Assembly (NCBI GenBank): GCA_017959225.1
Contig: JAGDBD010000104.1
Coordinates: 1 to 32,451 of the forward strand
Reading direction: 5' to 3'
From: Fibrobacter sp.
GTDB lineage: Bacteria > Fibrobacterota > Fibrobacteria > Fibrobacterales > Fibrobacteraceae
DNA: 32,451 bases
Below, in pieces: positions 12,560 through 32,451 of the stretch; position 1 is the first letter of the stretch, and every line of letters starts with the position of its first letter. Made by a program: the position numbers and the translations under genes. Under the pieces are notes generated by a model. That model was given only the letters and a program-made list of their open reading frames with translations. It did no database searches and was not told the origin of the DNA.

Positions 12560-12710
12560 TTTATTGTCCTTTTGAAGAGGAAGTTTAGTCGGTATTAAAT
12601 ATAGAACAATTTACCCCCATCTTGTTCCATAATTTTTTCCAATTTCTCATCCTAAGGGTATAAATTTTTTGATATCCTTTTTCCACATACTTTATCGTAT
12701 TTTAAAAGGG

Positions 12711-14465
12711 ATGCAACAACGTACTTACGAAATTTCTCAGGGGAAATCTCTTGCACAGGCTTTAAAAATCATTGGCAAGAGCAAAGCTTATCAAAACGCA
12801 TTCGATAAGCTTTTAATTGTCTATGAACCGAATTGCGATGAACAGTTCCTAGACAAGGAACGCATGACGATCCAAAAATATTTACCGGATATCAAAGTCA
12901 TCGCCATGACAACCTTTGGACCGGTGAGCAGCAATTTCATTTACCAAAAAAACACCCGGTTGACCCTGCTCCTATTTGACCGTTCCAAGATCGATATTTT
13001 TGAAGCCAACGGAAACGACAAGCATTTCAACAATCTCGGAGTCACTTGGGGATCTAAATTCCAAAGCATTCCAGATTTAAAAGGTTTGCTCTTTTTTTCG
13101 AGCAGCGCAACCTTGAACCCTGCCAGTTTAGTCCAAGAGCTCCAAGCGGCAAATTCCAATGTTCCGATTTTTGGGGCACAAGCTGGAACCCGGACTCTTG
13201 GAAACGACGAATCCAAAATCTTCAGTGCCAAACAGGTTTACGACAAAGGCGTTATTGTTGCAGCCCTCTCCGGAGAAGATCTTGAAATTTTTACCCAATA
13301 CACTTTAGGTTGGAAGCCCTTAGGCCGTACCCACGTTATCACCAGCAGCGATAGCCACGGCGTCGTTTCGACTGTAGACGGGAAATCCGTCAAAGAATTG
13401 TACGACAAATATCTCGACATTCCTTTTGACGAAGACTTTCCTGTAAAAGCCTGCGCATTTCCGCTCCTTTTCAAAAGCGGAAATACTTACACGGCAAAGA
13501 TTCCGATTCGTTACACGGAAGACGAAAAACTGATTTACCCGTCGGAGCTTAAAATTGGAACCAAGGTCTGGTTTTCCTATTCAAAGCCGGAATATCTTTT
13601 AAAGGAAACCCTCATCGCTGTCAATCGGATTGCTGAATTCCAGCCGCAGGGTCTGATGGTTTTTGCCTGCGTCAATCGACAGCTTTTTATGGGCGCAGAA
13701 AAAACGACCCGGGAGCACAATTACTTCCTAAAAGTTCTTCCTGAAGTCAGTTCCTGCTACGGCTATGGCGAAATTCTGCAAACAAAAAATGGTGGCGGAG
13801 TTTTTACGTCTTCCATCGTTTCCGCTGCTTTCCGCGAAGGCCCAGCAGATACCGATAAAATCATCAAGCCGATTATCGATCGAAAGCTTATTTCCAAAAA
13901 GAACCTCCACGAACTTTCGGACCAGCTCGTTTCATTTTTGGAAGCCACAACGGAAGATTTGAACAGCACCATTGACCAGTTAGCAGATCTTGCCGAACAC
14001 GATCAGCTGACCGGACTTTTTAACCGCAGAAAGATCAACGAAATTCTGGAATACGAACTTCGGAAGCGCCGCTCCGACGGAGACTTTAGCATTCTGATGT
14101 ACGACATCGACTTCTTTAAAAAGGTAAACGATGAATTCGGGCATCAGATAGGCGACCAAGTTCTCGTTCACGTTTCAAACCTGATCCGAAATTCGATTCG
14201 AGGCTGCGACGTTTTGGGACGCTGGGGCGGTGAAGAATTTATCTGCATTTTACCGAATACGCGGATCGCCGGGGCCAAAGCCCTTGCCGAACGCATGAGG
14301 CACCTGGTGGAATCTATTGAATTTCCGCCGCTCAAAAAATTGACCATTAGTCTTGGGATTACCGAAGTTCTTGCAAGCGATTCCTATGAAAGCTTACTGG
14401 TTCGTATGGACAATGCCCTTTACGATGCCAAAAAAAACGGTCGGAACCAGTTTTGCATCCATTAA
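12711..14465 (+). CDS. FIST-domain diguanylate cyclase (FIST_N-FIST_C-GGDEF)
   Basis: A 584-residue cytoplasmic protein with no transmembrane segment. Residues about 20-370 form a FIST sensor: FIST_N (GLLFFSSSATLNPASLVQELQ, VPIFGAQAGT, GVIVAALSG) and FIST_C (LMVFACVNRQLFMG, CYGYGEI). FIST domains are thought to sense small ligands such as amino acids. A helix (about 405-425) links to a C-terminal GGDEF domain with DQLTGLFNRR, MYDIDFFKKVND and the active site GGEEF (506-510). The inhibitory site RxxD is kept (R497-D500, exactly five residues before GGEEF), so feedback control by cyclic di-GMP is likely. The ATG at 12711 follows AAAAGGG directly, an unusually short spacing; a TTG at 12669 in the same frame is the alternative. 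It probably makes cyclic di-GMP in response to a bound ligand; the ligand is not known. Confidence 0.9.
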   Translation: MQQRTYEISQGKSLAQALKIIGKSKAYQNAFDKLLIVYEPNCDEQFLDKERMTIQKYLPDIKVIAMTTFGPVSSNFIYQKNTRLTLLLFDRSKIDIFEANGNDKHFNNLGVTWGSKFQSIPDLKGLLFFSSSATLNPASLVQELQAANSNVPIFGAQAGTRTLGNDESKIFSAKQVYDKGVIVAALSGEDLEIFTQYTLGWKPLGRTHVITSSDSHGVVSTVDGKSVKELYDKYLDIPFDEDFPVKACAFPLLFKSGNTYTAKIPIRYTEDEKLIYPSELKIGTKVWFSYSKPEYLLKETLIAVNRIAEFQPQGLMVFACVNRQLFMGAEKTTREHNYFLKVLPEVSSCYGYGEILQTKNGGGVFTSSIVSAAFREGPADTDKIIKPIIDRKLISKKNLHELSDQLVSFLEATTEDLNSTIDQLADLAEHDQLTGLFNRRKINEILEYELRKRRSDGDFSILMYDIDFFKKVNDEFGHQIGDQVLVHVSNLIRNSIRGCDVLGRWGGEEFICILPNTRIAGAKALAERMRHLVESIEFPPLKKLTISLGITEVLASDSYESLLVRMDNALYDAKKNGRNQFCIH

Positions 14466-20283: not shown

Positions 20284-20392
20284 TTGCTTCGCCTGTCATT
20301 GCGAACGCAGTGAAGCAATCGCAATGACATTTCGCCTGTCGTCGCGAACGCATTCCCCATGTCATTGCGAGGAGCGTAGCGACGAAGCAATC
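20282..20392. repeat. REP-like intergenic palindromic repeats
   Basis: The gap between argH and the copper ATPase gene is filled with copies of one palindromic unit. Copy 1 has outer arms GATTGCTTC (20282-20290) and GAAGCAATC (20312-20320) with GTCATTGCGA inside. Copy 2 (20361-20392) reads GTCATTGCGAGGAGCGTAGC and then GACGAAGCAATC. A diverged piece (TCGCCTGTCGTCGCGAACGC) lies between. Such GTCATTGCGAGG/GAAGCAATC units occur between genes in many bacteria. The last copy runs into the stop codon of the ATPase gene. No transposase is near. Confidence 0.75.
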
Positions 20393-20600
20393 AACCTTTG
20401 AATGTATACCCAGCCTTCGTGATAGCAGATTCTAGTTCAGCATCCGAAGGCATTTTTTCATATTCGATTTCCACTGCCTTCTTTTTGTGATCCGCAGTCG
20501 CACGGACGATTCCAGGCAAAGATTCTAACGCCTGTTTCACATGGGCTTCGCAATGGGCACACATCATTCCGTCTACATGCAAAATTCTTGTATTTGCCAT
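20391..20600 (-). CDS. copZ: CopZ-like copper chaperone, in-frame internal start within the ATPase gene
   Basis: The ATG at 20600, in the same frame as the ATPase, is preceded at 6 bases by CAGGAG (complement of 20607-20612) and would yield a free 69-residue HMA protein, [20 protein letters not shown]..., with the metal pair C14 and C17 and the usual CopZ length. It is therefore either a second product of the same gene or the remains of a once separate copZ. One more A in the A6 run just upstream (T run, plus 20613-20618) would place a TAA (plus 20602-20604) one base before this ATG and separate the two genes. Internal initiation is inferred from the ribosome site only. Confidence 0.5.
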
Positions 20601-22889
20601 TTTAATCTCCTGTTTTTTGAAGAAATTCAACCGCAAAGCATTTGTCACAACACAAAAGCTTGAAAGGCTCATGGCAAACGCAGCGAACGTGGCGTTCAAA
20701 GTCCAACCGAAAATGGGATAAAAACAACCCGCTGCAAGGGGCATGCCAATCACGTTATAAATGAACGCCCAAAAAAGATTTTCGTGAATATTTCGAATCG
20801 TTTTACGGCTTAAGCGGATCGCTGTCACCACATCATTGAGAGAACTTTTTACAAGCACCACATCGGCAGCATCGATCGCTACATCCGTTCCCGCTCCGAT
20901 GGCAATTCCCACGTCGGCACGGGTAAGCGCCAAAGCATCATTAATGCCGTCGCCCACCATGGCCACCTTTCGATTTTTAAAACGCTGAATGGCTGCGTCT
21001 TTTTCATTCGGAAGAACTTCTGCAATCACATCGTCTATGCCAACCCTTTGAGCAATAGCCTTTGCCGTTCGAAGATTATCACCGGTAAGCATCACAACGT
21101 GAAGGCCCATCTGGCGAAGCTTTGAAATTGCAGGCGCAGAATCCGGTTTAACTGAATCTGCCACAGCAATCATTCCCAAAAAACGATTTTCCAATGCGAA
21201 CAAAAGCGGTGTAGAGCCTCCATTCGAAAGTTCTTCCACTTGATCGACGATTTCTTGGGAAAGATTTTCTTGAGAAGCGATAAATTTATACGATCCGCCG
21301 ACTAAAGATTTCCACTTTCCGTCTACGAAAATTTTCGCCGAAAGACCGTTCCCCGGATGGGCTGTAAAATCCGTCACGTTTCGCAGTTCTACGCCAGAAG
21401 CCTTCGCCATAATCGCCTTTGCCAAGGGATGTTCGCTTTTCGCTTCTAAGCTTGCGGCAAATTGCAAAAGTTCTGCTTCGGAAATTTCTTTTGCCGGAAT
21501 AATTTTTGTGACTTCCGGTTCTCCACGGGTGATTGTTCCCGTTTTATCCAAAACCACAATTTCTGTGCGCCCTGCCGTTTCGAGAGCTTCCGATGTTTTA
21601 AAAAGAATTCCATTTTTTGCACCGACACCGTTCCCCACCATGATGGCAACAGGCGTTGCAAGCCCCAAAGCGCAAGGGCAACTGATAACGAGAACCGTGA
21701 TTCCACGGGCCAAAGCAAAACCCACACCAGATCCAGACAAAAGCCAAACACATACCGTTACGACGGCAATCGCAATTACAATTGGCACAAAAACTCCAGC
21801 CACCCGATCCGCCATTTTTGCAATGGGAGCTTTAGTCGCAGCAGCATCCGACACCATCTGGATAATTTTTGCAAGAGTCGTATCTTCGCCAACCCGCGTC
21901 GCTTTACACTTCAAAAAGCCGGAACAATTCATTGTTGCAGCAGAAACACGGTCATCTTTCGATTTATCGACCGGAACGCTCTCCCCTGTCAAAGCGGATT
22001 CGTTCACAGCGGAAGAGCCGTCTAAAACAAAACCGTCTACGGGAATTTTTTCTCCCGGTCGAACGGCAAAAACGTCTCCCACTTTTAAAGAATTCGCAGG
22101 CACGATTTTTTCGGTATCTTTTCCATTTTCCAAAACGATCAAGCGGGCCGTTTGAGGAGCAAGTTCCATTAATCCTTTAATCGCATTCGTCGTTCGGCCT
22201 TTGGAAATCGCTTCCAACAATTTTCCGACTGTGATTAAGGAAACGATCATCGCTGCGCTTTCAAAATAATAAGCGTCCATGAAGCTCCGGGCTAAAGCTT
22301 CTCCGCCCGTCAACTGAGCTTCTGTCATTTTGAAAAGAACCGCTACGCTGTATATAAAAGAAACTCCCGCTCCCAACGCAACTAGGGAATCCATATTCGG
22401 CGCCCGATGAATCATCCCTTTAAATCCGCTTACAAAAAATTTTTGATTGATGATCAAAACAATTCCTGCAAGAACCATTTGAACAAGAGCCATGGCCACA
22501 TGATTCGGCTGCGGAGAAGTAAACCAACTCGGCAACGGAAATCCAAACATCATATGTCCCATGCTAAAATACAACAGCGGAACAAGGAATAAGAACGATG
22601 CTATCAATCGCCTTTTTAAAAGAGGGATTTCTTGATTTTTTAAATTCAATCCGAAATCAGGCCTAGACTCCGATGGGCGAAGGGGTTCTGCGCTTGCCAC
22701 AGTCGCCCCGTAACCCGCTTTTTCCACAGCAGAAATCACGTCTGCCGAAGAAGCGGATCCGTTCACCGTCATGGAATTCGTTAAAAGGCTTACTGCGCAA
22801 GAATCCACACCGGGAATCGCATTGACCGCTTTTTCCACACGGGCGACACATGCGGCACAGCTCATTCCTGTTACAGAGTACTTTCCCAT
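20391..22889 (-). CDS. copA: Copper-type P1B ATPase fused at its C terminus to a CopZ-like HMA domain
   Basis: An 832-residue inner-membrane ATPase that probably exports Cu+. In order: N-terminal HMA domain with C11-x2-C14, eight transmembrane segments, the TGES actuator motif, the membrane metal site CPC (C404-C406), the phosphorylated D448 in [17 protein letters not shown], and [10 protein letters not shown]. The last membrane helices end near residue 757, and then a second complete HMA domain (764-832, GMMCAHC with C777 and C780) follows in frame. Chaperone-like HMA domains are normally at the N terminus or on a separate CopZ. The joint codes for KKQEIK and contains a CAGGAG ribosome site and an ATG for the second part (see 20391-20600). 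It lies 21 bases after the small HMA protein gene, in one operon. Exact metal (Cu or Ag) is inferred from CPC. Confidence 0.93.
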
Positions 22890-22910: not shown

Positions 22911-23279
22911 TTAGCGGTCTTCTATCGAAAGGACGTGGTAATTTCCAGCCCGGTGAACAGCAGATCGAATTTCTTCTTCCGACACTTCACGGATCGCGTC
23001 CAGTTTGACTGTGCCCTTTTTCAAATTCACCGATGCGGAAGCTCCGTCGATTTCATTCAGAGCCTCCTGCACATGGGATTTGCAATTTTCGCACATCATG
23101 CCTTGAATGCGGATAGTCTTTTTAAAGACAATTGTTCCATTCAGTTTTTTGCCGAACGCATCCCGGCAGCCGCAATTTCCGCCGCAGCAAGAGCCTTGTC
23201 CCTTAAAATGCACAATGGAAGAACGCACCGCAAAAAAGATGACAAGGACGATAATAGCAATGATAAAAACATTGATCAC
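22911..23279 (-). CDS. Membrane-anchored FeoB-associated-like/HMA metal-binding protein
   Basis: A 122-residue protein with an N-terminal transmembrane helix (2-18) and a short Cys-rich stretch (HFKGQGSCCGGNCGC; C31, C32, C36, C38) like the FeoB-associated Cys-rich membrane proteins, followed by an HMA domain at about 53-118 with GMMCENC (C63, C66). It could hand metal ions to the adjacent ATPase. The GTG start at 23279 follows AAGGAGA at good spacing. It is the first gene of the operon with the copper ATPase 21 bases downstream. The combination of both domains is unusual; which metal it carries is not known. Confidence 0.75.
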   Translation of the reverse strand: MINVFIIAIIVLVIFFAVRSSIVHFKGQGSCCGGNCGCRDAFGKKLNGTIVFKKTIRIQGMMCENCKSHVQEALNEIDGASASVNLKKGTVKLDAIREVSEEEIRSAVHRAGNYHVLSIEDR

Positions 23280-23315: not shown

Positions 23316-23381
23316 ATTTAGTTAAATCTAACTTTAAAAACCAGCCAGTCCGAATGAATTCCGTAATTTAGACGTGTCTAA
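23316..23381. promoter_or_regulatory. Two palindromic operator-like sites upstream of the metal operon
   Basis: ATTTAG-N5-TCTAA occurs at 23316-23331 (spacer TTAAA) and again at 23366-23381 (spacer ACGTG), exactly 50 bases apart. Both have the dyad TTAG-N6-CTAA. The first lies 37-52 bases before the GTG of the HMA protein, where it could cover the promoter; the second overlaps the stop codon of the gene upstream. The dyad is reminiscent of DtxR/MntR-type metal-regulator sites, but the regulator is not in the window. Confidence 0.45.
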
Positions 23382-24064
23382 GAACGGCGTTTGCGTTCTT
23401 GAGGCGCAAGGCGTTCCGTAATTTTGGAAAGGCTATCGTAAAGTTCTAGGAAATCTTCCACCCAGATTGCGTCTCGTTCCCCCACCAGGGAAAGTGCGTT
23501 CTCCAGAGTATGTTCCGCATTGTACGGCCCGACCACAGCTCCCGTCGGCGAATGTCCAAATCCCGAAGAATGTTGGCTGTAGAGAATCATCGCGGCGCGG
23601 GCACGGTAGGAACGATGTAAACGGGAAATCAGTTGAGAGCGGAGAGAAAAAAGTTCCGAGTAGGCTTCGTCAAATTTTTCTTCGGAAAGGAGTTCCTTTG
23701 CACGGTCCATATTGTGCGAAAAAGAAATGCGTTCCGCCACCGGAATCAAATAATTTTTCGCATTCAACATAGTCTGAATCTGGGTCAGTTCCTTTTCAAT
23801 GGCTGCGGCATTCCAAAGGGAAACCTTCGCCGGTGCAGGTTTTGCCGTGCGAGCGAGTTCCTTTTCGTGTTCATCCACCCAATGGTTCAAACGACAAATC
23901 ATTTCATGAGCTTCATCTTCCCCGCCGACAGCGATATAGTCGCTAACACGGGACAGGGAAAATTCCGCATAAGCCAGACGCCAATACGGCAAGCGATCCT
24001 TTTTGCGGAGCTCGTCTACTTTGCTTTTTAAAGCAAGGAATTCAGCGTCCAACGCTTCACTCAT
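23378..24064 (-). CDS. Unknown helical protein at the end of the ZorAB-like operon
   Basis: A 228-residue protein with no signal peptide or membrane helix, rich in charged helices (LDAEFLALKSKVDELRKKDRLPYWRLAYAEFSLSRVSDY, then ERISFSHNMDRAKELLSEEKFDEAYSELFSLRSQLISRLHRSYRARAAMI). The middle segment resembles a TPR-like helical pair. The C terminus is basic (RLAPQERKRRS). Its ATG overlaps the stop of the OmpA-like gene by 4 bases, so it is translationally coupled and likely works with that membrane complex in the cytoplasm. I do not recognise a family. Confidence 0.75.
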   Translation of the reverse strand: MSEALDAEFLALKSKVDELRKKDRLPYWRLAYAEFSLSRVSDYIAVGGEDEAHEMICRLNHWVDEHEKELARTAKPAPAKVSLWNAAAIEKELTQIQTMLNAKNYLIPVAERISFSHNMDRAKELLSEEKFDEAYSELFSLRSQLISRLHRSYRARAAMILYSQHSSGFGHSPTGAVVGPYNAEHTLENALSLVGERDAIWVEDFLELYDSLSKITERLAPQERKRRS

Positions 24065-24705
24065 TTTTTCACAACCTCAGCCGCTTCCGATTTGCGGATC
24101 GGCGTAATACCGATTTCCACGCGGCGGTTCAAACGGCGATTTTCTTCACTCGTATTCGGTACACGGGGATGGAATTCTCCAAAGCCTGCTGCAAAGACCC
24201 GTTCTCCTGGGAAGCCTTGATTTATAAGGGTTTTCACCACATTTACAGCGCGTTCTGTAGAAAGGTTCCAGTTTGTATATGTGGGAGAATTCGTCGGAGT
24301 GTCATCGGTAAAGCCCGAGACCATGATCGCATCTCCGGAATCCAAAACATCTTGCAATCCTTGACCGATGGATTTGATGATGTTCACACCTTCTGCAGTC
24401 AAATCGGCTCCGTTACGCGGAAAAAGGAAAGACGCCTGAATTTGGATGTTTCCATTTTCTAGCGCAATGATTCCCTTTTCGAGAGGCGCTTTTAAGCTTT
24501 GAGAGAGCAGAGCATTGCGTTCCTTCGCCACACGGCGCATTTCTTCTTGGCAGCTCACGACTTCCTGTTCGGTACGCGTCAACGCTTCCGCTTTCTTTTC
24601 TTTCATGGTCGTCATGGCGACAAATGCAAGAATGAACAAAGCAAGCAGACCCGCGGTCAAGTCCGTAAAAACAAGCCAGTGGCTTTCTTCGCGACGCTTC
24701 GCCAT
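24061..24705 (-). CDS. MotB/ZorB-like proton-channel subunit with OmpA peptidoglycan-binding domain
   Basis: A 214-residue inner-membrane protein. A short basic N terminus leads to one transmembrane helix (about 11-33, WLVFTDLTAGLLALFILAFVAM) whose D15 sits where MotB-type proteins carry the proton-binding aspartate. A coiled segment (about 35-75) follows, and then an OmpA-like domain at about 80-205 (VSGFTDDTPTNSPTYTNWNLSTERAVNVV, GFGEFHPRVPNTSEENRRLNRRVEI) that binds peptidoglycan. It starts 3 bases after the MotA-like gene stops. Such pairs make ion-driven stators (MotAB, ZorAB). No flagellar gene is in the window, so a non-flagellar role is likely. Confidence 0.88.
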   Translation of the reverse strand: MAKRREESHWLVFTDLTAGLLALFILAFVAMTTMKEKKAEALTRTEQEVVSCQEEMRRVAKERNALLSQSLKAPLEKGIIALENGNIQIQASFLFPRNGADLTAEGVNIIKSIGQGLQDVLDSGDAIMVSGFTDDTPTNSPTYTNWNLSTERAVNVVKTLINQGFPGERVFAAGFGEFHPRVPNTSEENRRLNRRVEIGITPIRKSEAAEVVKK

Positions 24706-24708
24706 GGA

Positions 24709-26520
24709 TTATTCCGCCTTCTTAGGAGCCTTCTGAACCTGATCCAGAATTTCAAGGAGAATTTCCTGGGTCTTCAAAGCGTTTTCAAGCAGCACTTCGC
24801 CGGAACGTTCCTGGAAAGACTGCAACGCGGTATTCAGCTGTTCAATAAAGTTCTGTTCGTTTTCACGTTCCGGAACATCGCCCGAAAGTTTCGAAAGCAC
24901 CACTTCGATGCCCTTGCCGAACATTTCGAGGTTCGCTGCGAATTCGGACTGGTTCACACGCATAAGCTTTGCCGCTTCCGCAATGTTAGAGCCAAGAGCT
25001 TCCGTCGATTCGTTTTCCTTGATGACGCGGTTATCGATACCGGTAATGAGGGCCTGTTGCGAAGCCACAAGGGATTCGGAAGATTTGGCAAGTTCCGCAA
25101 AAGACGTCTGAACCTTCTGGGAAAGGTTTTCGATTTCAGTGGTAACCGTATTCGAAAGTCCAACCGTGGAATCGTTTGCCTTGGAAGCCACGTCTTCGGC
25201 AACGGAACACAAAATTTCAAGGCCTTTCTGTTCAGCTTCCGCCACCTTTTCGGTAGAAACCTTGAGAGATTCCATAAAGGAATTCCACTGTTCCCCGGAG
25301 TTCGCCATTTGCGTATCGAGATGAGAAGAAATGGAATTTGCAACGCTGGAAGAAAGGTTCGAAATTTCTTTTTCAAGACCGTCCACAACGCCCGATTCAA
25401 TGGATTTGACGCTGGTCGAAAGCTTCTGCATTTCTTCGGAAAGTCCAGAAGTCACTAATGACAAGGAATCTCGCAGTTCTGCCGTAGCAGACTTCCCAGA
25501 TTCGGCAACGCTTGCTGCTGCATTCTTTTGAACCAAAGCGAATTCTTCGGAAAGCTTTTGGACCGCAGCCTGCATGCCTTCGAGAGCGGACTTCTGCGCA
25601 AGGGCAAGATCTTGCATCGCCTTTTCGCCAAACTTCGAAATGCTTTCCACAAAGGACTGTTGCAGCTCGGAAAGATTCTTCTTTTGCGCCACTTCCAAAG
25701 AAGCAAGGCTCGAAGTCAAAGAATTTGTACGGGAAGCTTCCGCAGCCTTCGACGCATCCACAATGCTCCGGAAATCCGCAGCACGGGCTTCGTCCGAAGA
25801 CTTCACCGTTTCAATCAGACGACGGATTTCGTTCGCCGCTTCATTTTCTGCTGATGCAGACTTCGGAATCAAATAGAAAAGAGTGAATTCATCCAGTTCC
25901 GCAATCAAGGCTTCATGGTCCGATTCATAGGATCCATGGATCGTATTCAAAACAAGTGCAGCGAACAAACCGCAAAGCGAAGAGCCGAAAATACCCTTCA
26001 TGCTCGCAAAAATATTCTGGATAATTCCCAAGGTCGTTTCGGAAGTCGCATTCGTATCGATAGCAGAACCGGCAGCATTAATCGAAAGCATTAAACCGAA
26101 GAATGTACCCATCAAACCGAGGAGCACAACGACACCGCCATTGCTACGCACAGAAACATCTTCTTTTGAAATCCAAGTGGACTTTAAGAACGGAAGATCC
26201 TGCACGGAAACCTTCACCTGCTTTGCAGCCAGGCTTTTCAAAAAGCGTACACGGGAATTCAGAATGCCATCTGCTTCCGTATCTTCATTCGACGGAACGC
26301 TTCCCGCATTGTAAATGTCCGCATATTTCTTAGCCAGTTCCCTTTCTTTCGCCGTTTTCTGAATTCCGCGGAACACATTCCACGAAGTCAACAGATAGAT
26401 TGCAAAAATGGCAATCATAATGAGCCAGCCAAAAAGCGGAGCTCCAAAGTAAACGGTTCCAACCGCAAGAACGATTGCACCGATCAGGGAAATAATTAAA
26501 GTCCGAGAAGATTTTGTCAT
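24709..26520 (-). CDS. MotA/ZorA-like proton-channel subunit with long coiled-coil tail
   Basis: A 603-residue inner-membrane protein. Four transmembrane segments (about 8-27, 30-47, 127-148 and 176-194) follow the MotA/TolQ/ExbB plan; the third carries the family motif LGLMGTFFGLML and the fourth SSLCGLFAALVLNTIHG. Residues about 200-600 are a continuous Ser/Ala/Glu-rich coiled coil without membrane segments, which would project into the cytoplasm as the tail of ZorA does. Ordinary MotA, TolQ and ExbB lack it. The gene begins 2 bases after the previous stop and ends 3 bases before the MotB-like partner. It likely forms the pentameric channel of a proton-driven motor; what the tail contacts is unknown. 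Confidence 0.85.
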   Translation of the reverse strand: MTKSSRTLIISLIGAIVLAVGTVYFGAPLFGWLIMIAIFAIYLLTSWNVFRGIQKTAKERELAKKYADIYNAGSVPSNEDTEADGILNSRVRFLKSLAAKQVKVSVQDLPFLKSTWISKEDVSVRSNGGVVVLLGLMGTFFGLMLSINAAGSAIDTNATSETTLGIIQNIFASMKGIFGSSLCGLFAALVLNTIHGSYESDHEALIAELDEFTLFYLIPKSASAENEAANEIRRLIETVKSSDEARAADFRSIVDASKAAEASRTNSLTSSLASLEVAQKKNLSELQQSFVESISKFGEKAMQDLALAQKSALEGMQAAVQKLSEEFALVQKNAAASVAESGKSATAELRDSLSLVTSGLSEEMQKLSTSVKSIESGVVDGLEKEISNLSSSVANSISSHLDTQMANSGEQWNSFMESLKVSTEKVAEAEQKGLEILCSVAEDVASKANDSTVGLSNTVTTEIENLSQKVQTSFAELAKSSESLVASQQALITGIDNRVIKENESTEALGSNIAEAAKLMRVNQSEFAANLEMFGKGIEVVLSKLSGDVPERENEQNFIEQLNTALQSFQERSGEVLLENALKTQEILLEILDQVQKAPKKAE

Positions 26521-26522
26521 TG

Positions 26523-27413
26523 TTATCCCACGGTTTTATGAGTAAAAAGATCCAACTGTCCACGCGAAAAGCCGCGCAGATACAAAAGCCATTTATCGCG
26601 ATACCACTTGCCGATAAAAAGCGTTAAGCCTTGAGCGTAATCGCAGAAGTCATCGGTAAAAGCGAGGAACGCATTTTCATAAGCGATATTCGCATTGTTT
26701 GCGCCTACATTCTTAGCACAGGAACGGGCCGTCTGGTAGTGACGCTTATCGCGAGGCGGCTTAAATTCCGCCATAAAACGATTTCGAGAAATTCCTGCTA
26801 AAGAAGCGCGAAGGCGAGACGTCAAAGCGTATTCGCTTGAACGCAAAGCCGATTCCAGGGCCGGTAAAATTTTAGAAGAAGCGTCCACAGCACTTTCTTT
26901 ATACCACAAGCGCGAAAGCTTGTCTTGCATATGTTCGACACGACCCGAAAGATTGACAAGCAACTTTTCGGCATCACCCACCATCAAGTGGATGGTCGAA
27001 AAATAGAGGTTGCGAAGTTTCTCTGCCGTCGCTGTATAGTACCAGCCATCGTCGTCACATGCGATGTACTGGTTCTGCGAAAGCATACGGGTGATTTCAT
27101 CCGTTGCAAAACGTTGAATCCACTTGGCGCGGAATTCTTCAAATTTTTGACGGTATTCGTCGAGAATAATCGGGAAATCTTCAGCGGCGATTTTCCAAGC
27201 GGCCTTACCATTGGAAATCATTTCGCTGCCCGCCATCATTTCTTCCGGGTTCGATTCTGCTGCGTCCAAATGTTCATAAAGCGCAATGGACCAGCGAATG
27301 TCCATCGCCTGGGAAAGGCTCGCCAGTTCCGAAGCACGGTCCAAACGGAAACCGAGACCGAGCAAGCTCGTCCCCGTCATCTTCCGAATCGCTCTACGAA
27401 ATTTTTCTTCCAC
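26523..27413 (-). CDS. Unknown cytoplasmic protein of the ZorAB-like operon
   Basis: A 296-residue, mostly helical protein with no signal peptide or clear membrane helix. Recognisable stretches are WSIALYEHLDAAESNPEEM, WIQRFATDEITRMLSQNQYIACDDDGWYY and FLAFTDDFCDYAQGLTLFIGKWYRDKWLLYLRGF; it is unusually rich in Trp and Tyr for a soluble protein. The GTG start at 27413 has AGGGG upstream; the next Met, 12 codons in, is the alternative. It sits 2 bases before the MotA-like gene, so it is probably made with it. Proteobacterial clusters with a DUF3348-DUF802-OmpA-DUF2894 order have an unknown gene in the same place; whether this one is related cannot be told by eye. Confidence 0.75.
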   Translation of the reverse strand: MEEKFRRAIRKMTGTSLLGLGFRLDRASELASLSQAMDIRWSIALYEHLDAAESNPEEMMAGSEMISNGKAAWKIAAEDFPIILDEYRQKFEEFRAKWIQRFATDEITRMLSQNQYIACDDDGWYYTATAEKLRNLYFSTIHLMVGDAEKLLVNLSGRVEHMQDKLSRLWYKESAVDASSKILPALESALRSSEYALTSRLRASLAGISRNRFMAEFKPPRDKRHYQTARSCAKNVGANNANIAYENAFLAFTDDFCDYAQGLTLFIGKWYRDKWLLYLRGFSRGQLDLFTHKTVG

Positions 27414-27422
27414 GCGTTCCCC

Positions 27423-28124
27423 TTAAAAGCCCGATTCAATTCTTTGCCAGACGCTTTTTGAAACCTTTCTACCTTTGCCGGCAAGGTCATCGGATTCCTT
27501 GCGAATATCCGCTTCCAAATTATTGGTCACCGATTTTGCATCGCCATCAAAGGTCGTTCCTTTGTAAAGATAGAGTCCAAAAACGTTTTCGTGGATCTTC
27601 GTGTTGCGAAAACGCACCGATCCGACGCCCACCGAAAGCGCAAAGCGATTCCGCTTAAAATCGCAGCCTACAAGATCAAATCTGGGAGAATTTTCTACCC
27701 AAAGTCCGTAGTAATTATTGACGAACTTGACATTTTCAAAAATTCCCTGGGACCGAATCACCGTGTTGCGGAACGAATTTTCCACTCGCAAATTTTTGAC
27801 TTCAAAGTAATTGTCGCCTGTGGAAAAGTACAGACCGTTCCACGATTCCGAAGAATCCGCATTCAAAAAGGCTACCGGCTTTTGAACGGTTCCATTGATA
27901 TGAACCGTGCCCCGCAAATAAAGCTTTGCATAGCCGCTAAAGAAAACTTCTACACCGGGCTCGATTTCAAGCGTGTCTTCGGCACCCAGAACAAAGCTCG
28001 TTTCCAAAAGATACGGTGACGAAACCGATGAAAGCAAAACCTTGTGATGCTTCACCGCCGGAAAAGGCGTTACCGCATAAGACACGCCTAAAAGACATAG
28101 GAAAGCTAAGAGCAATCGTTTCAT
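27423..28124 (-). CDS. Exported right-handed beta-helix protein
   Basis: A 233-residue protein with a signal peptide (MKRLLLAFLCLLGVSYA, cleavage near residue 17). The mature part has a repeating pattern of short strands and turns (LEIEPGVEVFFSGYAKLYLRGTVHINGTVQKPVAFLNAD, FEVKNLRVENSFRNTVIRSQGIFENVKFVNNYYGLWVENSPRFDLVGCDFKRNRFALSVGVGSVRFRNTKIHENVFGLYLY) typical of NosD/pectate-lyase-like parallel beta-helices. No catalytic residues of polysaccharide lyases are evident. Its ATG overlaps the lipoprotein stop by 4 bases, and the next gene starts 9 bases after it. It probably acts in the periplasm or outer surface beside the motor complex. Confidence 0.8.
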   Translation of the reverse strand: MKRLLLAFLCLLGVSYAVTPFPAVKHHKVLLSSVSSPYLLETSFVLGAEDTLEIEPGVEVFFSGYAKLYLRGTVHINGTVQKPVAFLNADSSESWNGLYFSTGDNYFEVKNLRVENSFRNTVIRSQGIFENVKFVNNYYGLWVENSPRFDLVGCDFKRNRFALSVGVGSVRFRNTKIHENVFGLYLYKGTTFDGDAKSVTNNLEADIRKESDDLAGKGRKVSKSVWQRIESGF

Positions 28125-28957
28125 TCGCGAACGCTCCTCAGCGTAATTTTTTGACGTACGCGCAAATCCGGAATGGTGTCTCCACTTTTCTTTTCGATGA
28201 CACGCATCTTTCCTTCAATGTTCAATTCCCCTTCAACGACCTTTCCAGCGGCAATGTCAAAAAGGATGGTTCCCGTTCCAAGCACAAAGTCCGAGCTTTC
28301 CATCACCTGAGCGTCGTCTTCACTGTTTTGCTTGTACCGAACGTTCATTTGGAGTTTTGCAATTTTCACACCGTCCCGGTCAAAGACTTCTTCCAATTTG
28401 AACCATTTATAAACCACGCTCTGCTTATGATTGTCATCCGTTAAAACCTGTTGACGTTCCCAGGAATCTCCCACCTCCAGCGGACTCGACGGAAGAACCG
28501 GCTGAACTTTGAGGAAAATGCGGCGAATATCCACATCGCCCACATCCGGAAGGGCTACCATGTCATCGAACCGGACAGAACTCATTTCCCCATCGCTTCC
28601 CATTTTGTACTGAACCGCTTGAGTCTTCAAATAGCGCTGAATGTGATCCGTTTCTTCGACAGAGCGATTATCCGAAATGTAACTAGCCGAATCCACCCGA
28701 AGTAAAAAACGTCCCGTTCCGTCGTCATAAGCAGAAAGCAGTTCGGAATGAACCAAAACATTCACCGTCGCTGTCATCGACTGTTGAACTTCCGCCTGAG
28801 CATTTTCCGGAGAATTCAACAACACGTGCAACGAACTTTTTAGTTCATAGTTTTCCGGAGTCGGATTCTGGGTGTTGAAGCCGAGAGATATAGATTTGTC
28901 TTCGCATGCGACAAATACAAGCGAAAACAGAAGAGACAGGAGCGCAATACGGTTCAT
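28121..28957 (-). CDS. Lipoprotein of unknown function, first gene of the envelope unit
   Basis: A 278-residue lipoprotein with the lipobox VFVAC (Cys18). The mature part looks like a beta-rich periplasmic domain (ALPDVGDVDIRRIFLKVQPVLPSSPLEVGDSWERQQVLTDD, SDFVLGTGTILFDIAAGKVVEGELNIEGKMRVIEKK). The GDSWERQ and AAGKVVEGELN stretches recall DUF6263-type lipoproteins, though this is by eye only. It starts 14 bases after the tadA stop, so it may be read from the upstream operon as well as from a promoter of its own. It overlaps the beta-helix gene by 4 bases. Confidence 0.75.
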   Translation of the reverse strand: MNRIALLSLLFSLVFVACEDKSISLGFNTQNPTPENYELKSSLHVLLNSPENAQAEVQQSMTATVNVLVHSELLSAYDDGTGRFLLRVDSASYISDNRSVEETDHIQRYLKTQAVQYKMGSDGEMSSVRFDDMVALPDVGDVDIRRIFLKVQPVLPSSPLEVGDSWERQQVLTDDNHKQSVVYKWFKLEEVFDRDGVKIAKLQMNVRYKQNSEDDAQVMESSDFVLGTGTILFDIAAGKVVEGELNIEGKMRVIEKKSGDTIPDLRVRQKITLRSVRE

Positions 28958-30964: not shown

Positions 30965-32451
30965 CTACCCCTGTTCAGCGTCTTCTTTTTCAAAGCCTCG
31001 GTCCTGATATTCTACAACACGGTTTCTTCCGCCTTCCTTTGCGCTGTAAAGGGCATCGTCTGCATAATGGACAGCCCGTTCCATTTCTCCCTGGAATTCT
31101 CGCGTTGCAAGGTAACAGCCAATGCTTACCGTTACAGGAATCGGAGCGCCTTGGTGAATGTCAAAAGGAGACGAATTCACAGCCACACGGATCGCTTCGG
31201 CGGTTTCCTTCAGCACTTCTTCGGTAGCTCCAGGAATCGCAACAAAGAATTCTTCTCCGCCGTAACGGGCCAAAAGATTTTCACCTTTGTTTGCTACAGA
31301 GGAAATGCGGGAAGCGATTCCCTTCAAAATCGTGTCACCAGCTTGATGTCCATAAGTGTCGTTGATATGCTTAAAGTGGTCGATGTCCATCATCATCACA
31401 CCCACCGCTTTTTCCTGGCGAACCTTGTTCAATTCCATCACCTTTTCGTTGATGGTTCTACGGTTCAAAAGGCCTGTCAACGCATCGTGATAAATTTCGA
31501 ACTGTTCATGTTCAAACTGCATACCGCGCTGATAAGCGAAGTAAGCGATGTTCACCATAAAGCGGAGCAGGTCTTTTTCGAACTGTTCGAACTTAATAGG
31601 CTGACGACGTTCAATGCAAATGGCAAGTTCCGAAGGGCGATTCATGGCCACGTTGTGCATGGTCATGGAACTCGGCTGAGCAAAGAGGTAGCGCAAAGTG
31701 CTGTTGCGAGGTTCTTCGTCGTTGATGCGGTAAACGTAATCGTGTCCGTTGAACACCCGTTCCGTTGCGCTATGCTGCATCATGGCGAGAGGCAAAATGC
31801 CCTTGTCCGAAAGGGAAAAATGCATGCCTTCAAAATGTTTTTCATCTTCGCCACGGCAGAACGCCACGGTTCCCTGTTCCTTTTCCAAATTGTCGAACAC
31901 GAGAATCATGATACGGTCCGCCGTAAAGTTCTGGCTTACATATTCAAAGATTTCTTTGTAAGTGTCCTTCAAAAGGGTGGTTTTAAAGAATTTCTGCTGG
32001 TATGCGGAAAGTTCATAGAACTTTTTCTTTTCGCGGTAATTCGACGCCGACGTGTAGCTCTTGTATGTGAGCATGTAGAACATGGCGGCAAAGCTGTCGA
32101 GAATCGGAATCAAAGTGGCGTTAAACGCATTGCGTTCCAAAGAATCGATGACAAGAGCGCCGACCCTTTGACTTTTGCTGTTGTAAATAGGAACTCCGGC
32201 AACGGAATGCACCATGGGAACCGTAGCATAGTAACCCAAACTTTTTCCATTCAAAAGATCGCCTTCAAGGATGCGGTTCACATCCCGGTGGGAAAGCTGA
32301 CCGATCACTCCCGAGCCATCGTCGATGCGGGCATTCATATTGATTTCCGCTTCGACTTCTGCCGAGAACTGGCGAATGGCAAAGGATTTTCCATCTCCCG
32401 ATTTAAAAAGCAAAAGCACCGTGTGGGATTTCGGCACAAGAGTCTGGAGAG
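30965..32451 (-). CDS. GAF-GGDEF diguanylate cyclase (5' end outside window)
   Basis: The reading frame is open to the right edge, and the sequence before the first visible GTG (LQTLVPKSHTVLLLF) is the first helix of a GAF domain, so the true start lies outside. The visible part holds a first GAF domain (VAGVPIYNSKSQRVGALVIDS), a second GAF-like domain (FEYVSQNFTADRIMILVFDN, then SELAICIERR), and a C-terminal GGDEF domain with DALTGLLNRR, MMMDIDHFKHINDTYGHQAGD and the active site GGEEF (complement of 31247-31261). The inhibitory RxxD site is lost (KGEN at the matching place), unlike the FIST-GGDEF protein. It probably makes cyclic di-GMP, perhaps free of feedback control. The symporter gene starts 2 bases after its stop. 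Confidence 0.88.
   Translation of the reverse strand, partial: LQTLVPKSHTVLLLFKSGDGKSFAIRQFSAEVEAEINMNARIDDGSGVIGQLSHRDVNRILEGDLLNGKSLGYYATVPMVHSVAGVPIYNSKSQRVGALVIDSLERNAFNATLIPILDSFAAMFYMLTYKSYTSASNYREKKKFYELSAYQQKFFKTTLLKDTYKEIFEYVSQNFTADRIMILVFDNLEKEQGTVAFCRGEDEKHFEGMHFSLSDKGILPLAMMQHSATERVFNGHDYVYRINDEEPRNSTLRYLFAQPSSMTMHNVAMNRPSELAICIERRQPIKFEQFEKDLLRFMVNIAYFAYQRGMQFEHEQFEIYHDALTGLLNRRTINEKVMELNKVRQEKAVGVMMMDIDHFKHINDTYGHQAGDTILKGIASRISSVANKGENLLARYGGEEFFVAIPGATEEVLKETAEAIRVAVNSSPFDIHQGAPIPVTVSIGCYLATREFQGEMERAVHYADDALYSAKEGGRNRVVEYQDRGFEKEDAEQG

What the first reader, a model, noticed from the sequence alone, without database searches (positions are those of the whole stretch)
23378..28957. 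Six-gene envelope operon built round a ZorAB-like motor, without Zorya effectors
Six minus-strand genes with 4-base overlaps or gaps of 2-9 bases encode a lipoprotein, a secreted beta-helix protein, an unknown helical protein, a four-TM MotA-type channel subunit with a ~400-residue coiled-coil tail, a MotB-type subunit with TM aspartate D15 and an OmpA peptidoglycan-binding domain, and a last unknown protein. The long tail is characteristic of ZorA of the Zorya anti-phage system, not of MotA, TolQ or ExbB, yet no ZorC, ZorD or ZorE is present; instead there are outer-envelope components. This suggests a proton-driven machine that couples a cytoplasmic rod to peptidoglycan and a periplasmic lipoprotein/beta-helix pair. 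The function (defence, cell-surface organisation, adhesion or gliding) is open.
Basis: partly seen in the sequence, partly recalled or inferred. Interest (0 to 1): 0.75.

Follow-up and report, generated by a model that had tools for sequence, protein, structure and literature searches.

The report
Core-genome Zorya III-like rotary motor operon
A motor of the kind some bacteria use against phages (Zorya type III), previously described mainly from Proteobacteria, turns out to be a fixed, inherited part of nearly every Fibrobacter-class genome, and some of these bacteria have thrown away the motor but kept the proteins at the tip of its rod, which suggests that those tip proteins are the working core.

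Summary
The six genes are real and tightly packed as described. The channel pair is neither MotAB nor TolQR. ZorB is a full-length relative of Zorya type III ZorB (39% identity, p 7.6e-40), and the ZorA channel half matches Zorya III ZorA (p 2.5e-8). All 17 proteobacterial loci examined have the order ZorF-ZorA-ZorB-ZorG, identical to genes 3-4-5-6. Profile comparisons with shuffle controls support the pairing, although no single-sequence HMM detects gene 3 or gene 6. "Without Zorya effectors" is therefore true only for ZorC/D/E.

The module is single-copy and vertically inherited throughout class Fibrobacteria, outside any defence island. The lipoprotein and beta-helix genes are lineage-specific additions. 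In two clades (genera g7/g11; families f3-f5) the channel part of ZorA and all of zorB are missing, yet gene 3, the rod tip and gene 6 remain adjacent. I read it as an ion-driven, peptidoglycan-anchored motor turning a cytoplasmic rod whose tip works with the ZorF- and ZorG-like proteins. A resident envelope function seems likelier than dedicated defence; neither is shown. New variant of a known kind.

The parts
28121..28957 (-). Outer-envelope lipoprotein (278 aa; Cys18 is the predicted lipidation site at 28904-28906)
   Evidence: ORF; invariant Cys in 15 homologues; found next to gene 3 in Fibrobacteraceae and genus g14 of family f3, absent from g7, g11, f2, g13, f4 and f5
27423..28124 (-). 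Secreted right-handed beta-helix protein (233 aa, signal peptide)
   Evidence: Pfam Beta_helix E 1.2e-6, above cut-off; seen in Fibrobacteraceae loci only
26523..27413 (-). Gene 3, ZorF/DUF3348-like helical cytoplasmic protein (296 aa)
   Evidence: Profile match to 17 ZorF, 205 collinear columns, 1 of 200 column shuffles as good; AF2 pLDDT 84.5, pTM 0.82, no PDB fold match
24709..26520 (-). ZorA-like channel subunit with long cytoplasmic rod (603 aa)
   Evidence: N-terminal 240 aa vs Zorya III ZorA p 2.5e-8, 100 shuffles max 23.7 vs 59.3; PADLOC ZorA1 2.5e-10 and ZorA3 1.3e-7
25939..26136 (-). Channel helices TM3-TM4 of ZorA-like (residues 129-194), missing in g7/g11 and f3-f5
   Evidence: Hydropathy of homologues
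24730..24993 (-). Conserved rod tip of ZorA-like (residues about 510-597, NQxE ... FQER..EVL.ENALKTQEILLEVL), the only part kept in all lineages
   Evidence: Alignment A5, one search match ranges; f4 homologue seen in L071; vs ZorA3 C-terminus 1 of 200 shuffles as good
24061..24705 (-). ZorB-like subunit (214 aa): TM helix with Asp15, periplasmic OmpA-type peptidoglycan-binding domain
   Evidence: vs Zorya III ZorB p 7.6e-40 over 199 columns; PADLOC ZorB3 2.5e-46; PRK09040 3.3e-44; Asp 111 of 112
24124..24426 (-). OmpA peptidoglycan-binding domain of ZorB-like (residues 94-194)
   Evidence: Pfam OmpA E 1.2e-16
23378..24064 (-). Gene 6, ZorG/DUF2894-like helical protein (228 aa)
   Evidence: Profile match to 17 ZorG, 0 of 200 shuffles as good; p 1.5e-4 over the C-terminal 41 aa
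23420..23542 (-). C-terminal motif of gene 6 (GPYN ... DPxWVEDFLELY; ZorG has GPLNS ... SPxYLQQFL)

Best explanation
Genes 3-6 are a divergent Zorya type III (ZorF-ZorA-ZorB-ZorG) module that has become part of the core genome of class Fibrobacteria. Five ZorA-like and two ZorB-like subunits would form an ion-driven rotary motor (inferred from the solved ZorA5B2 complexes). ZorB Asp15 would be the ion site and the OmpA domain would hold peptidoglycan. The ZorA tails would bundle into a long cytoplasmic rod ending in a conserved tip. The ZorF-like and ZorG-like proteins would bind or be actuated at that tip (inferred: these three elements are the only ones inherited together everywhere, including where the motor is lost). 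In Fibrobacteraceae an outer-envelope lipoprotein and a secreted beta-helix protein were added on the periplasmic side. I think it more likely senses or transmits the state of the cell wall in normal life than acts solely against phage. The homology, gene order and inheritance are shown; the assembly, tip binding and physiological role are inferred.
For: All four genes match their positional counterpart in Zorya III: ZorB p 7.6e-40 and ZorA channel half p 2.5e-8; gene 6-ZorG 0 of 200, gene 3-ZorF 1 of 200 and rod tip-ZorA C-terminus 1 of 200 shuffles as good, while mismatched pairs are reached by 11 to 64 of 200. The order F-A-B-G is the same in 17 of 17 proteobacterial loci. Core status: gene 3 is in 105 of 151 phylum genomes, at one match each, and confined to the class; ZorB is in 40 of 40 good-quality genomes of genus g2. 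Pairwise divergence of every gene follows that of the housekeeping neighbour tadA, r 0.68-0.77, 0 of 500 permutations. Lineages without the motor keep gene 3, tip and gene 6 side by side, nested by a supported gene 3 tree. ZorA5B2 architecture, ion flow, peptidoglycan binding and tail are needed in Zorya I/II (PMC11890865). Zorya III consists of ZorA, B, F, G (PMC8565338).
Against: Pfam DUF3348 and DUF2894 and the PADLOC partner models do not detect gene 3 or gene 6 in single sequences (one gene 6 member reaches DUF2894 at only E 0.019). The gene 3-ZorF link rests on profile statistics and collinearity, and the ZorF profile is shallow (17 beta-proteobacterial sequences). No fold match was found for gene 3 or 6. 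Zorya III was shown to protect E. coli against phage (PMC8565338), so a defence role cannot be dismissed. No expression or phenotype data could be tied to this operon.
Confidence: 0.62

Rival explanations
1. It is an anti-phage defence system, i.e. Zorya III proper: infection disturbs the peptidoglycan, ZorB grips it, the motor turns, and the ZorF/ZorG-like proteins at the rod carry out or control the antiviral response.
For: Homology of all four genes and identical order; Zorya III from Stenotrophomonas lowers plaquing in E. coli (PMC8565338); Zorya I/II use this motor for defence (PMC11890865).
Against: Single-copy, near-universal and vertically inherited in the class, whereas defence systems are usually patchy; neighbours are tadA, a solute symporter, a diguanylate cyclase and a copper ATPase, not defence genes; whole genera keep the module without motor.
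Confidence: 0.28
2. It is an unrelated envelope machine: a MotAB/TolQR-family motor that gained a coiled-coil tail independently, with a lipoprotein and beta-helix as its outer partners (adhesion, surface organisation or gliding), and genes 3 and 6 not related to ZorF/ZorG.
For: Genes 3 and 6 fail all single-sequence HMM tests for the Zorya III partners; lipoprotein and beta-helix are conserved in Fibrobacteraceae.
Against: ZorB is specifically Zorya III ZorB, 150.8 bits to PRK09040 against 98.6 for the next family, p 7.6e-40; matched profile pairs beat shuffles while mismatched do not; the order is identical; lipoprotein and beta-helix are not retained with the module in several lineages.
Confidence: 0.08
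3. The tip, gene 3 and gene 6 form a membrane-tethered cytoplasmic complex whose work does not need rotation; the ZorAB channel is an optional regulator.
For: g7/g11 have only a TM anchor, a linker (Pro/Lys/Glu-rich in L066) and the tip, with no ZorB orthologue found elsewhere in the genome; f3-f5 likewise keep a rod without channel.
Against: These may be relics with altered function; the ion-site Asp of ZorB is strongly conserved wherever the motor exists.
Confidence: 0.3

Closest known systems
Zorya type III (ZorA, ZorB, ZorF = DUF3348, ZorG = DUF2894; PMC8565338)
   Same: Same four-gene order and strand; ZorB full-length orthologue-like; ZorA channel half related; remote profile similarity of gene 3 to ZorF, gene 6 to ZorG, and rod tip to the ZorA C-terminus
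   Different: Partners too diverged for the family HMMs; ZorA tail shorter (603 aa in all, against about 720-1070 aa ORFs); extra lipoprotein and beta-helix genes; core genome of a different phylum; motor-less derivatives
Zorya type I / II (ZorABCD / ZorABE)
   Same: ZorAB-type motor with cytoplasmic tail and peptidoglycan-binding ZorB
   Different: No ZorC, ZorD or ZorE among the six proteins; ZorB scores far lower against ZorB1/ZorB2 models
Flagellar MotAB/PomAB
   Same: Four-TM channel subunit, TM Asp, OmpA-type periplasmic domain
   Different: Long rod tail, no flagellar neighbours, MotB models score below PRK09040/ZorB3
TolQR, ExbBD, AglRQS, GldLM
   Same: Ion-driven motor family of the 5:2 kind
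   Different: ZorB carries an OmpA domain, ZorA carries a long tail; no Tol, Ton or Gld partner genes beside it

Membership tests
Zorya type III | ZorB3-type MotB-like subunit (PRK09040/PDLC00651) | tested here: met
   PADLOC ZorB3 E 2.5e-46; profile p 7.6e-40; 150.8 bits is below NCBIfam's curated 194 cut-off
Zorya type III | ZorA with MotA-type channel and long tail | tested here: met
   PADLOC ZorA1 2.5e-10, ZorA3 1.3e-7, members up to 5.8e-16; channel p 2.5e-8
Zorya type III | ZorF (DUF3348) recognised by its family HMM | tested here: not met
   No hit of PF11828 or PADLOC models to gene 3
Zorya type III | ZorF relationship at profile-profile level | tested here: inconclusive
   p 0.01 over 205 collinear columns, 1 of 200 shuffles as good; p 0.054 with the shallower set
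Zorya type III | ZorG (DUF2894) recognised by its family HMM | tested here: not met
   PF11445 none; one member at PADLOC E 0.019
Zorya type III | ZorG relationship at profile-profile level | tested here: met
   p 1.5e-4 to 2.9e-4, 0 of 200 shuffles as good
Zorya type III | Gene order ZorF-ZorA-ZorB-ZorG | tested here: met
   17 of 17 reference loci and the window
Zorya type III | Protection against phage | not testable with these tools
   Needs an infection assay
Zorya type I/II | ZorC+ZorD or ZorE | tested here: not met
   Absent from the six proteins; the rest of the genome was not searched for them
Flagellar MotAB / TolQR | Best family match to MotB or TolR and matching neighbours | tested here: not met

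The most novel reading that the evidence does not exclude
Zorya III-type motors are primarily resident cell-envelope machines, of which phage defence is a side use. The conserved working unit is a membrane-tethered complex of rod tip, ZorF-like and ZorG-like proteins, to which the ion-driven motor is an actuator that has been lost at least once (g7/g11), and perhaps twice, in Fibrobacteria.
Probability: 0.4. Interest if true: 0.82.

Novelty: new variant of a known kind. Interest (0 to 1): 0.62.

Why it matters
How Zorya III works is unknown: I found no fold or activity reported for ZorF and ZorG. Fibrobacteria supply a distant, vertically inherited version, motor-less natural variants that point to the tip-F-G unit as the core, and a short list of invariant residues to mutate (gene 3 R101, W170, E194, W275, R280; gene 6 R148, G179, Y181, N182, W201). 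Near-universal presence in a non-mobile setting also challenges counting every ZorAB operon as a defence system in genome surveys.

Tried and rejected
JetB/MukE-like hit of gene 3 (E 1.9e-4): found in only 2 of 31 members and no such fold match, so rejected. Apolipoprotein and transposase hits to the ZorA tail: coiled-coil composition. Foldseek of gene 3 and gene 6 against the PDB: nothing at E <= 0.001. Pfam DUF3348/DUF2894 searches over 151 genomes: marginal hits fall outside the operon. Linking the ZorB-like gene to F. succinogenes FSU_0151 in proteomics (PMC4619616, PMC6851124): predicted pI of orthologues does not match, left unproven. First-pass search for related loci with all 31 gene 3 sequences failed for lack of conserved stretches; a narrower set worked. 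A DUF802 test was not run as such; the C-terminal comparison was made directly with DUF802-annotated ZorA proteins.
Full report
What is there. The first is a lipoprotein whose Cys18 is invariant in 15 homologues. The second is a secreted beta-helix protein (Pfam Beta_helix 1.2e-6). The third is an unknown helical protein. The fourth has four hydrophobic segments and a tail of about 390 residues. The fifth has a TM helix with Asp15, conserved in 111 of 112 orthologues, and an OmpA domain (1.2e-16). The sixth is a small helical protein. The neighbours are tadA, a sodium:solute symporter and a diguanylate cyclase upstream, and a heavy-metal HMA protein and P-type ATPase downstream.

Which organism. 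The window lies in a 2.43 Mb genome of 130 contigs. Related loci are named Fibrobacter, including F. intestinalis ATCC 43854 at 82% identity for gene 3, so this is Fibrobacteraceae. Family and genus labels such as f1 or g7 below are the search tool's anonymous labels.

Conservation. Gene 3, the ZorA-like gene and gene 6 each occur essentially once per genome. Gene 3 is in 105 of 151 phylum genomes, all of them in the same class as the window; none of the genomes labelled only 'same phylum' has a match. Gene 6 is in 97. ZorB is in 74 of 80 genomes of the sister genus g2, and in 40 of 40 of those that are nearly complete. In 72 loci fetched independently, the order tadA-lipo-bh-g3-ZorA-ZorB-g6 or a contig-truncated part of it dominates. 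In 54 loci with all genes, pairwise divergence of each operon gene tracks that of tadA (r 0.68-0.77, 0 of 500 permutations). TadA is adjacent, so this shows shared history of the locus; the drop of identity with taxonomic rank points the same way. This is core-genome behaviour.

Relation to Zorya. The ZorB-like protein is best matched by PADLOC ZorB3 (2.5e-46) and NCBIfam PRK09040 (3.3e-44). The ZorA-like protein matches ZorA1 and ZorA3 models weakly, other members up to 5.8e-16. A tblastn with ZorB against plasmids brought loci from Variovorax, Azoarcus, Aquabacterium, Caballeronia, Cupriavidus, Burkholderia and Paraburkholderia. Where annotated they read DUF3348 - DUF802 - OmpA - DUF2894. 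These are the partners of Zorya type III (ZorF and ZorG) described in PMC8565338 and PMC11890865. All 17 loci have the order F-A-B-G, which is the order of genes 3-4-5-6 here.

Testing the correspondence. ZorB-like vs ZorB: p 7.6e-40 over 199 columns. ZorA-like N-terminal part vs ZorA: p 2.5e-8 over 210 columns, score 59.3 against a shuffle maximum of 23.7. For the diverged parts I compared profiles and used 200 column shuffles as a null. Gene 6 vs ZorG scores 32.8 (0 of 200 as good). Gene 3 vs ZorF scores 25.1 over 205 collinear columns (1 of 200). ZorA tip vs ZorA C-terminus scores 17.7 (1 of 200). The six mismatched pairs are reached by 11 to 64 of 200. The clearest motif is at the C-terminus of gene 6, GPYN...DPxWVEDFLELY against GPLNS...SPxYLQQFL. 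Single-sequence HMMs do not see gene 3 or 6. I therefore call it a divergent Zorya III-like module rather than a standard member; the gene 3 link alone remains the weakest step.

The motor has been lost or was never gained in part of the class. In genera g7 and g11 the ZorA homologue is 180-244 residues. In L066, read in full, it is one TM anchor, a PKIE-type linker and the tip. In f3, f4 and f5 it has one or two TM segments, a coiled coil and the tip. The genes still overlap or nearly overlap in most of these loci, so nothing is missing from the assembly, and no ZorB orthologue was found elsewhere in those genomes (best matches are generic OmpA/MotB proteins). The tree of gene 3 needs two changes of state, forced by supported branches. 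g7/g11 sit inside the motor-bearing order, with f2 (motor-bearing) outside them, which favours loss there. For f3-f5 loss is the simpler reading if Proteobacteria and Fibrobacteria inherited the same module, but the direction is not proven.

Accessories. The lipoprotein occurs beside gene 3 in Fibrobacteraceae and in g14 of f3 (a motor-less lineage), but was not found in g7, g11, f2, g13, f4 or f5; the beta-helix gene was seen only in Fibrobacteraceae loci. They are thus not the defining partners of the motor.

How it probably works. By homology with solved ZorA5B2 complexes (PMC11890865), the pair forms an ion-driven rotary motor with ZorB holding peptidoglycan and the ZorA tails bundled into a rod. 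Since the tip, gene 3 and gene 6 are the only elements inherited together everywhere, I infer that the two proteins meet at the tip and that motor rotation, where present, acts on them. Structure prediction gives gene 3 a confident helical fold with a short beta hairpin (pLDDT 84.5, pTM 0.82) and gene 6 a less certain helical one (79.0, pTM 0.44), both without PDB counterparts. The physiological output is unknown. Universality, vertical inheritance and non-defence neighbours favour a resident envelope function; the demonstrated phage protection by a Stenotrophomonas Zorya III in E. coli (PMC8565338) keeps defence open.

Verdict. Observation confirmed; interpretation partly supported. The finding is a new variant of a known kind, with the motor-less derivatives as the most surprising part.

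Noticed in passing
L066:7519-8061 (genus g7), also L067-L070: In L066 the ZorA homologue is a single TM anchor followed by a (PKIEVPKIEIPKIE...) linker in place of channel and coiled coil, then the conserved tip; the homologues in L067-L070 are similarly short with one TM.
   Followed up: partly
L058-L062, L064, L065, L073-L075 (family f3); L063 (f5); L071 (f4): Motor-less ZorF-rod-ZorG operons: rod with one or two TM segments, no zorB.
   Followed up: yes
L088-L090, L094, L095, L178, L179: Annotated proteobacterial Zorya III operons on megaplasmids sit among metabolic and transport genes, not defence genes; worth a systematic check of whether Zorya III is core there too.
   Followed up: no
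PADLOC-DB PDLC00654: PADLOC-DB labels its DUF2894 model ZorF, whereas the paper (PMC8565338) calls DUF3348 ZorF and DUF2894 ZorG; names may be swapped in surveys.
   Followed up: no
window 22911-23279: Small protein fusing a FeoB-associated Cys-rich membrane segment to an HMA metal-binding domain, upstream of a P-type ATPase (20391-22889) that has two HMA domains.
   Followed up: no
window 12669-14465: FIST sensor domain fused to a GGDEF diguanylate cyclase; a second GGDEF protein lies at 30965-32437, upstream of the operon in this genus.
   Followed up: no
phages OR848533.1, OR847070.1, OR848573.1: Short records named Listeria phage contain an OmpA-like reading frame with 40% identity to ZorB residues 87-205; probably mislabelled or contaminating DNA.
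   Followed up: no
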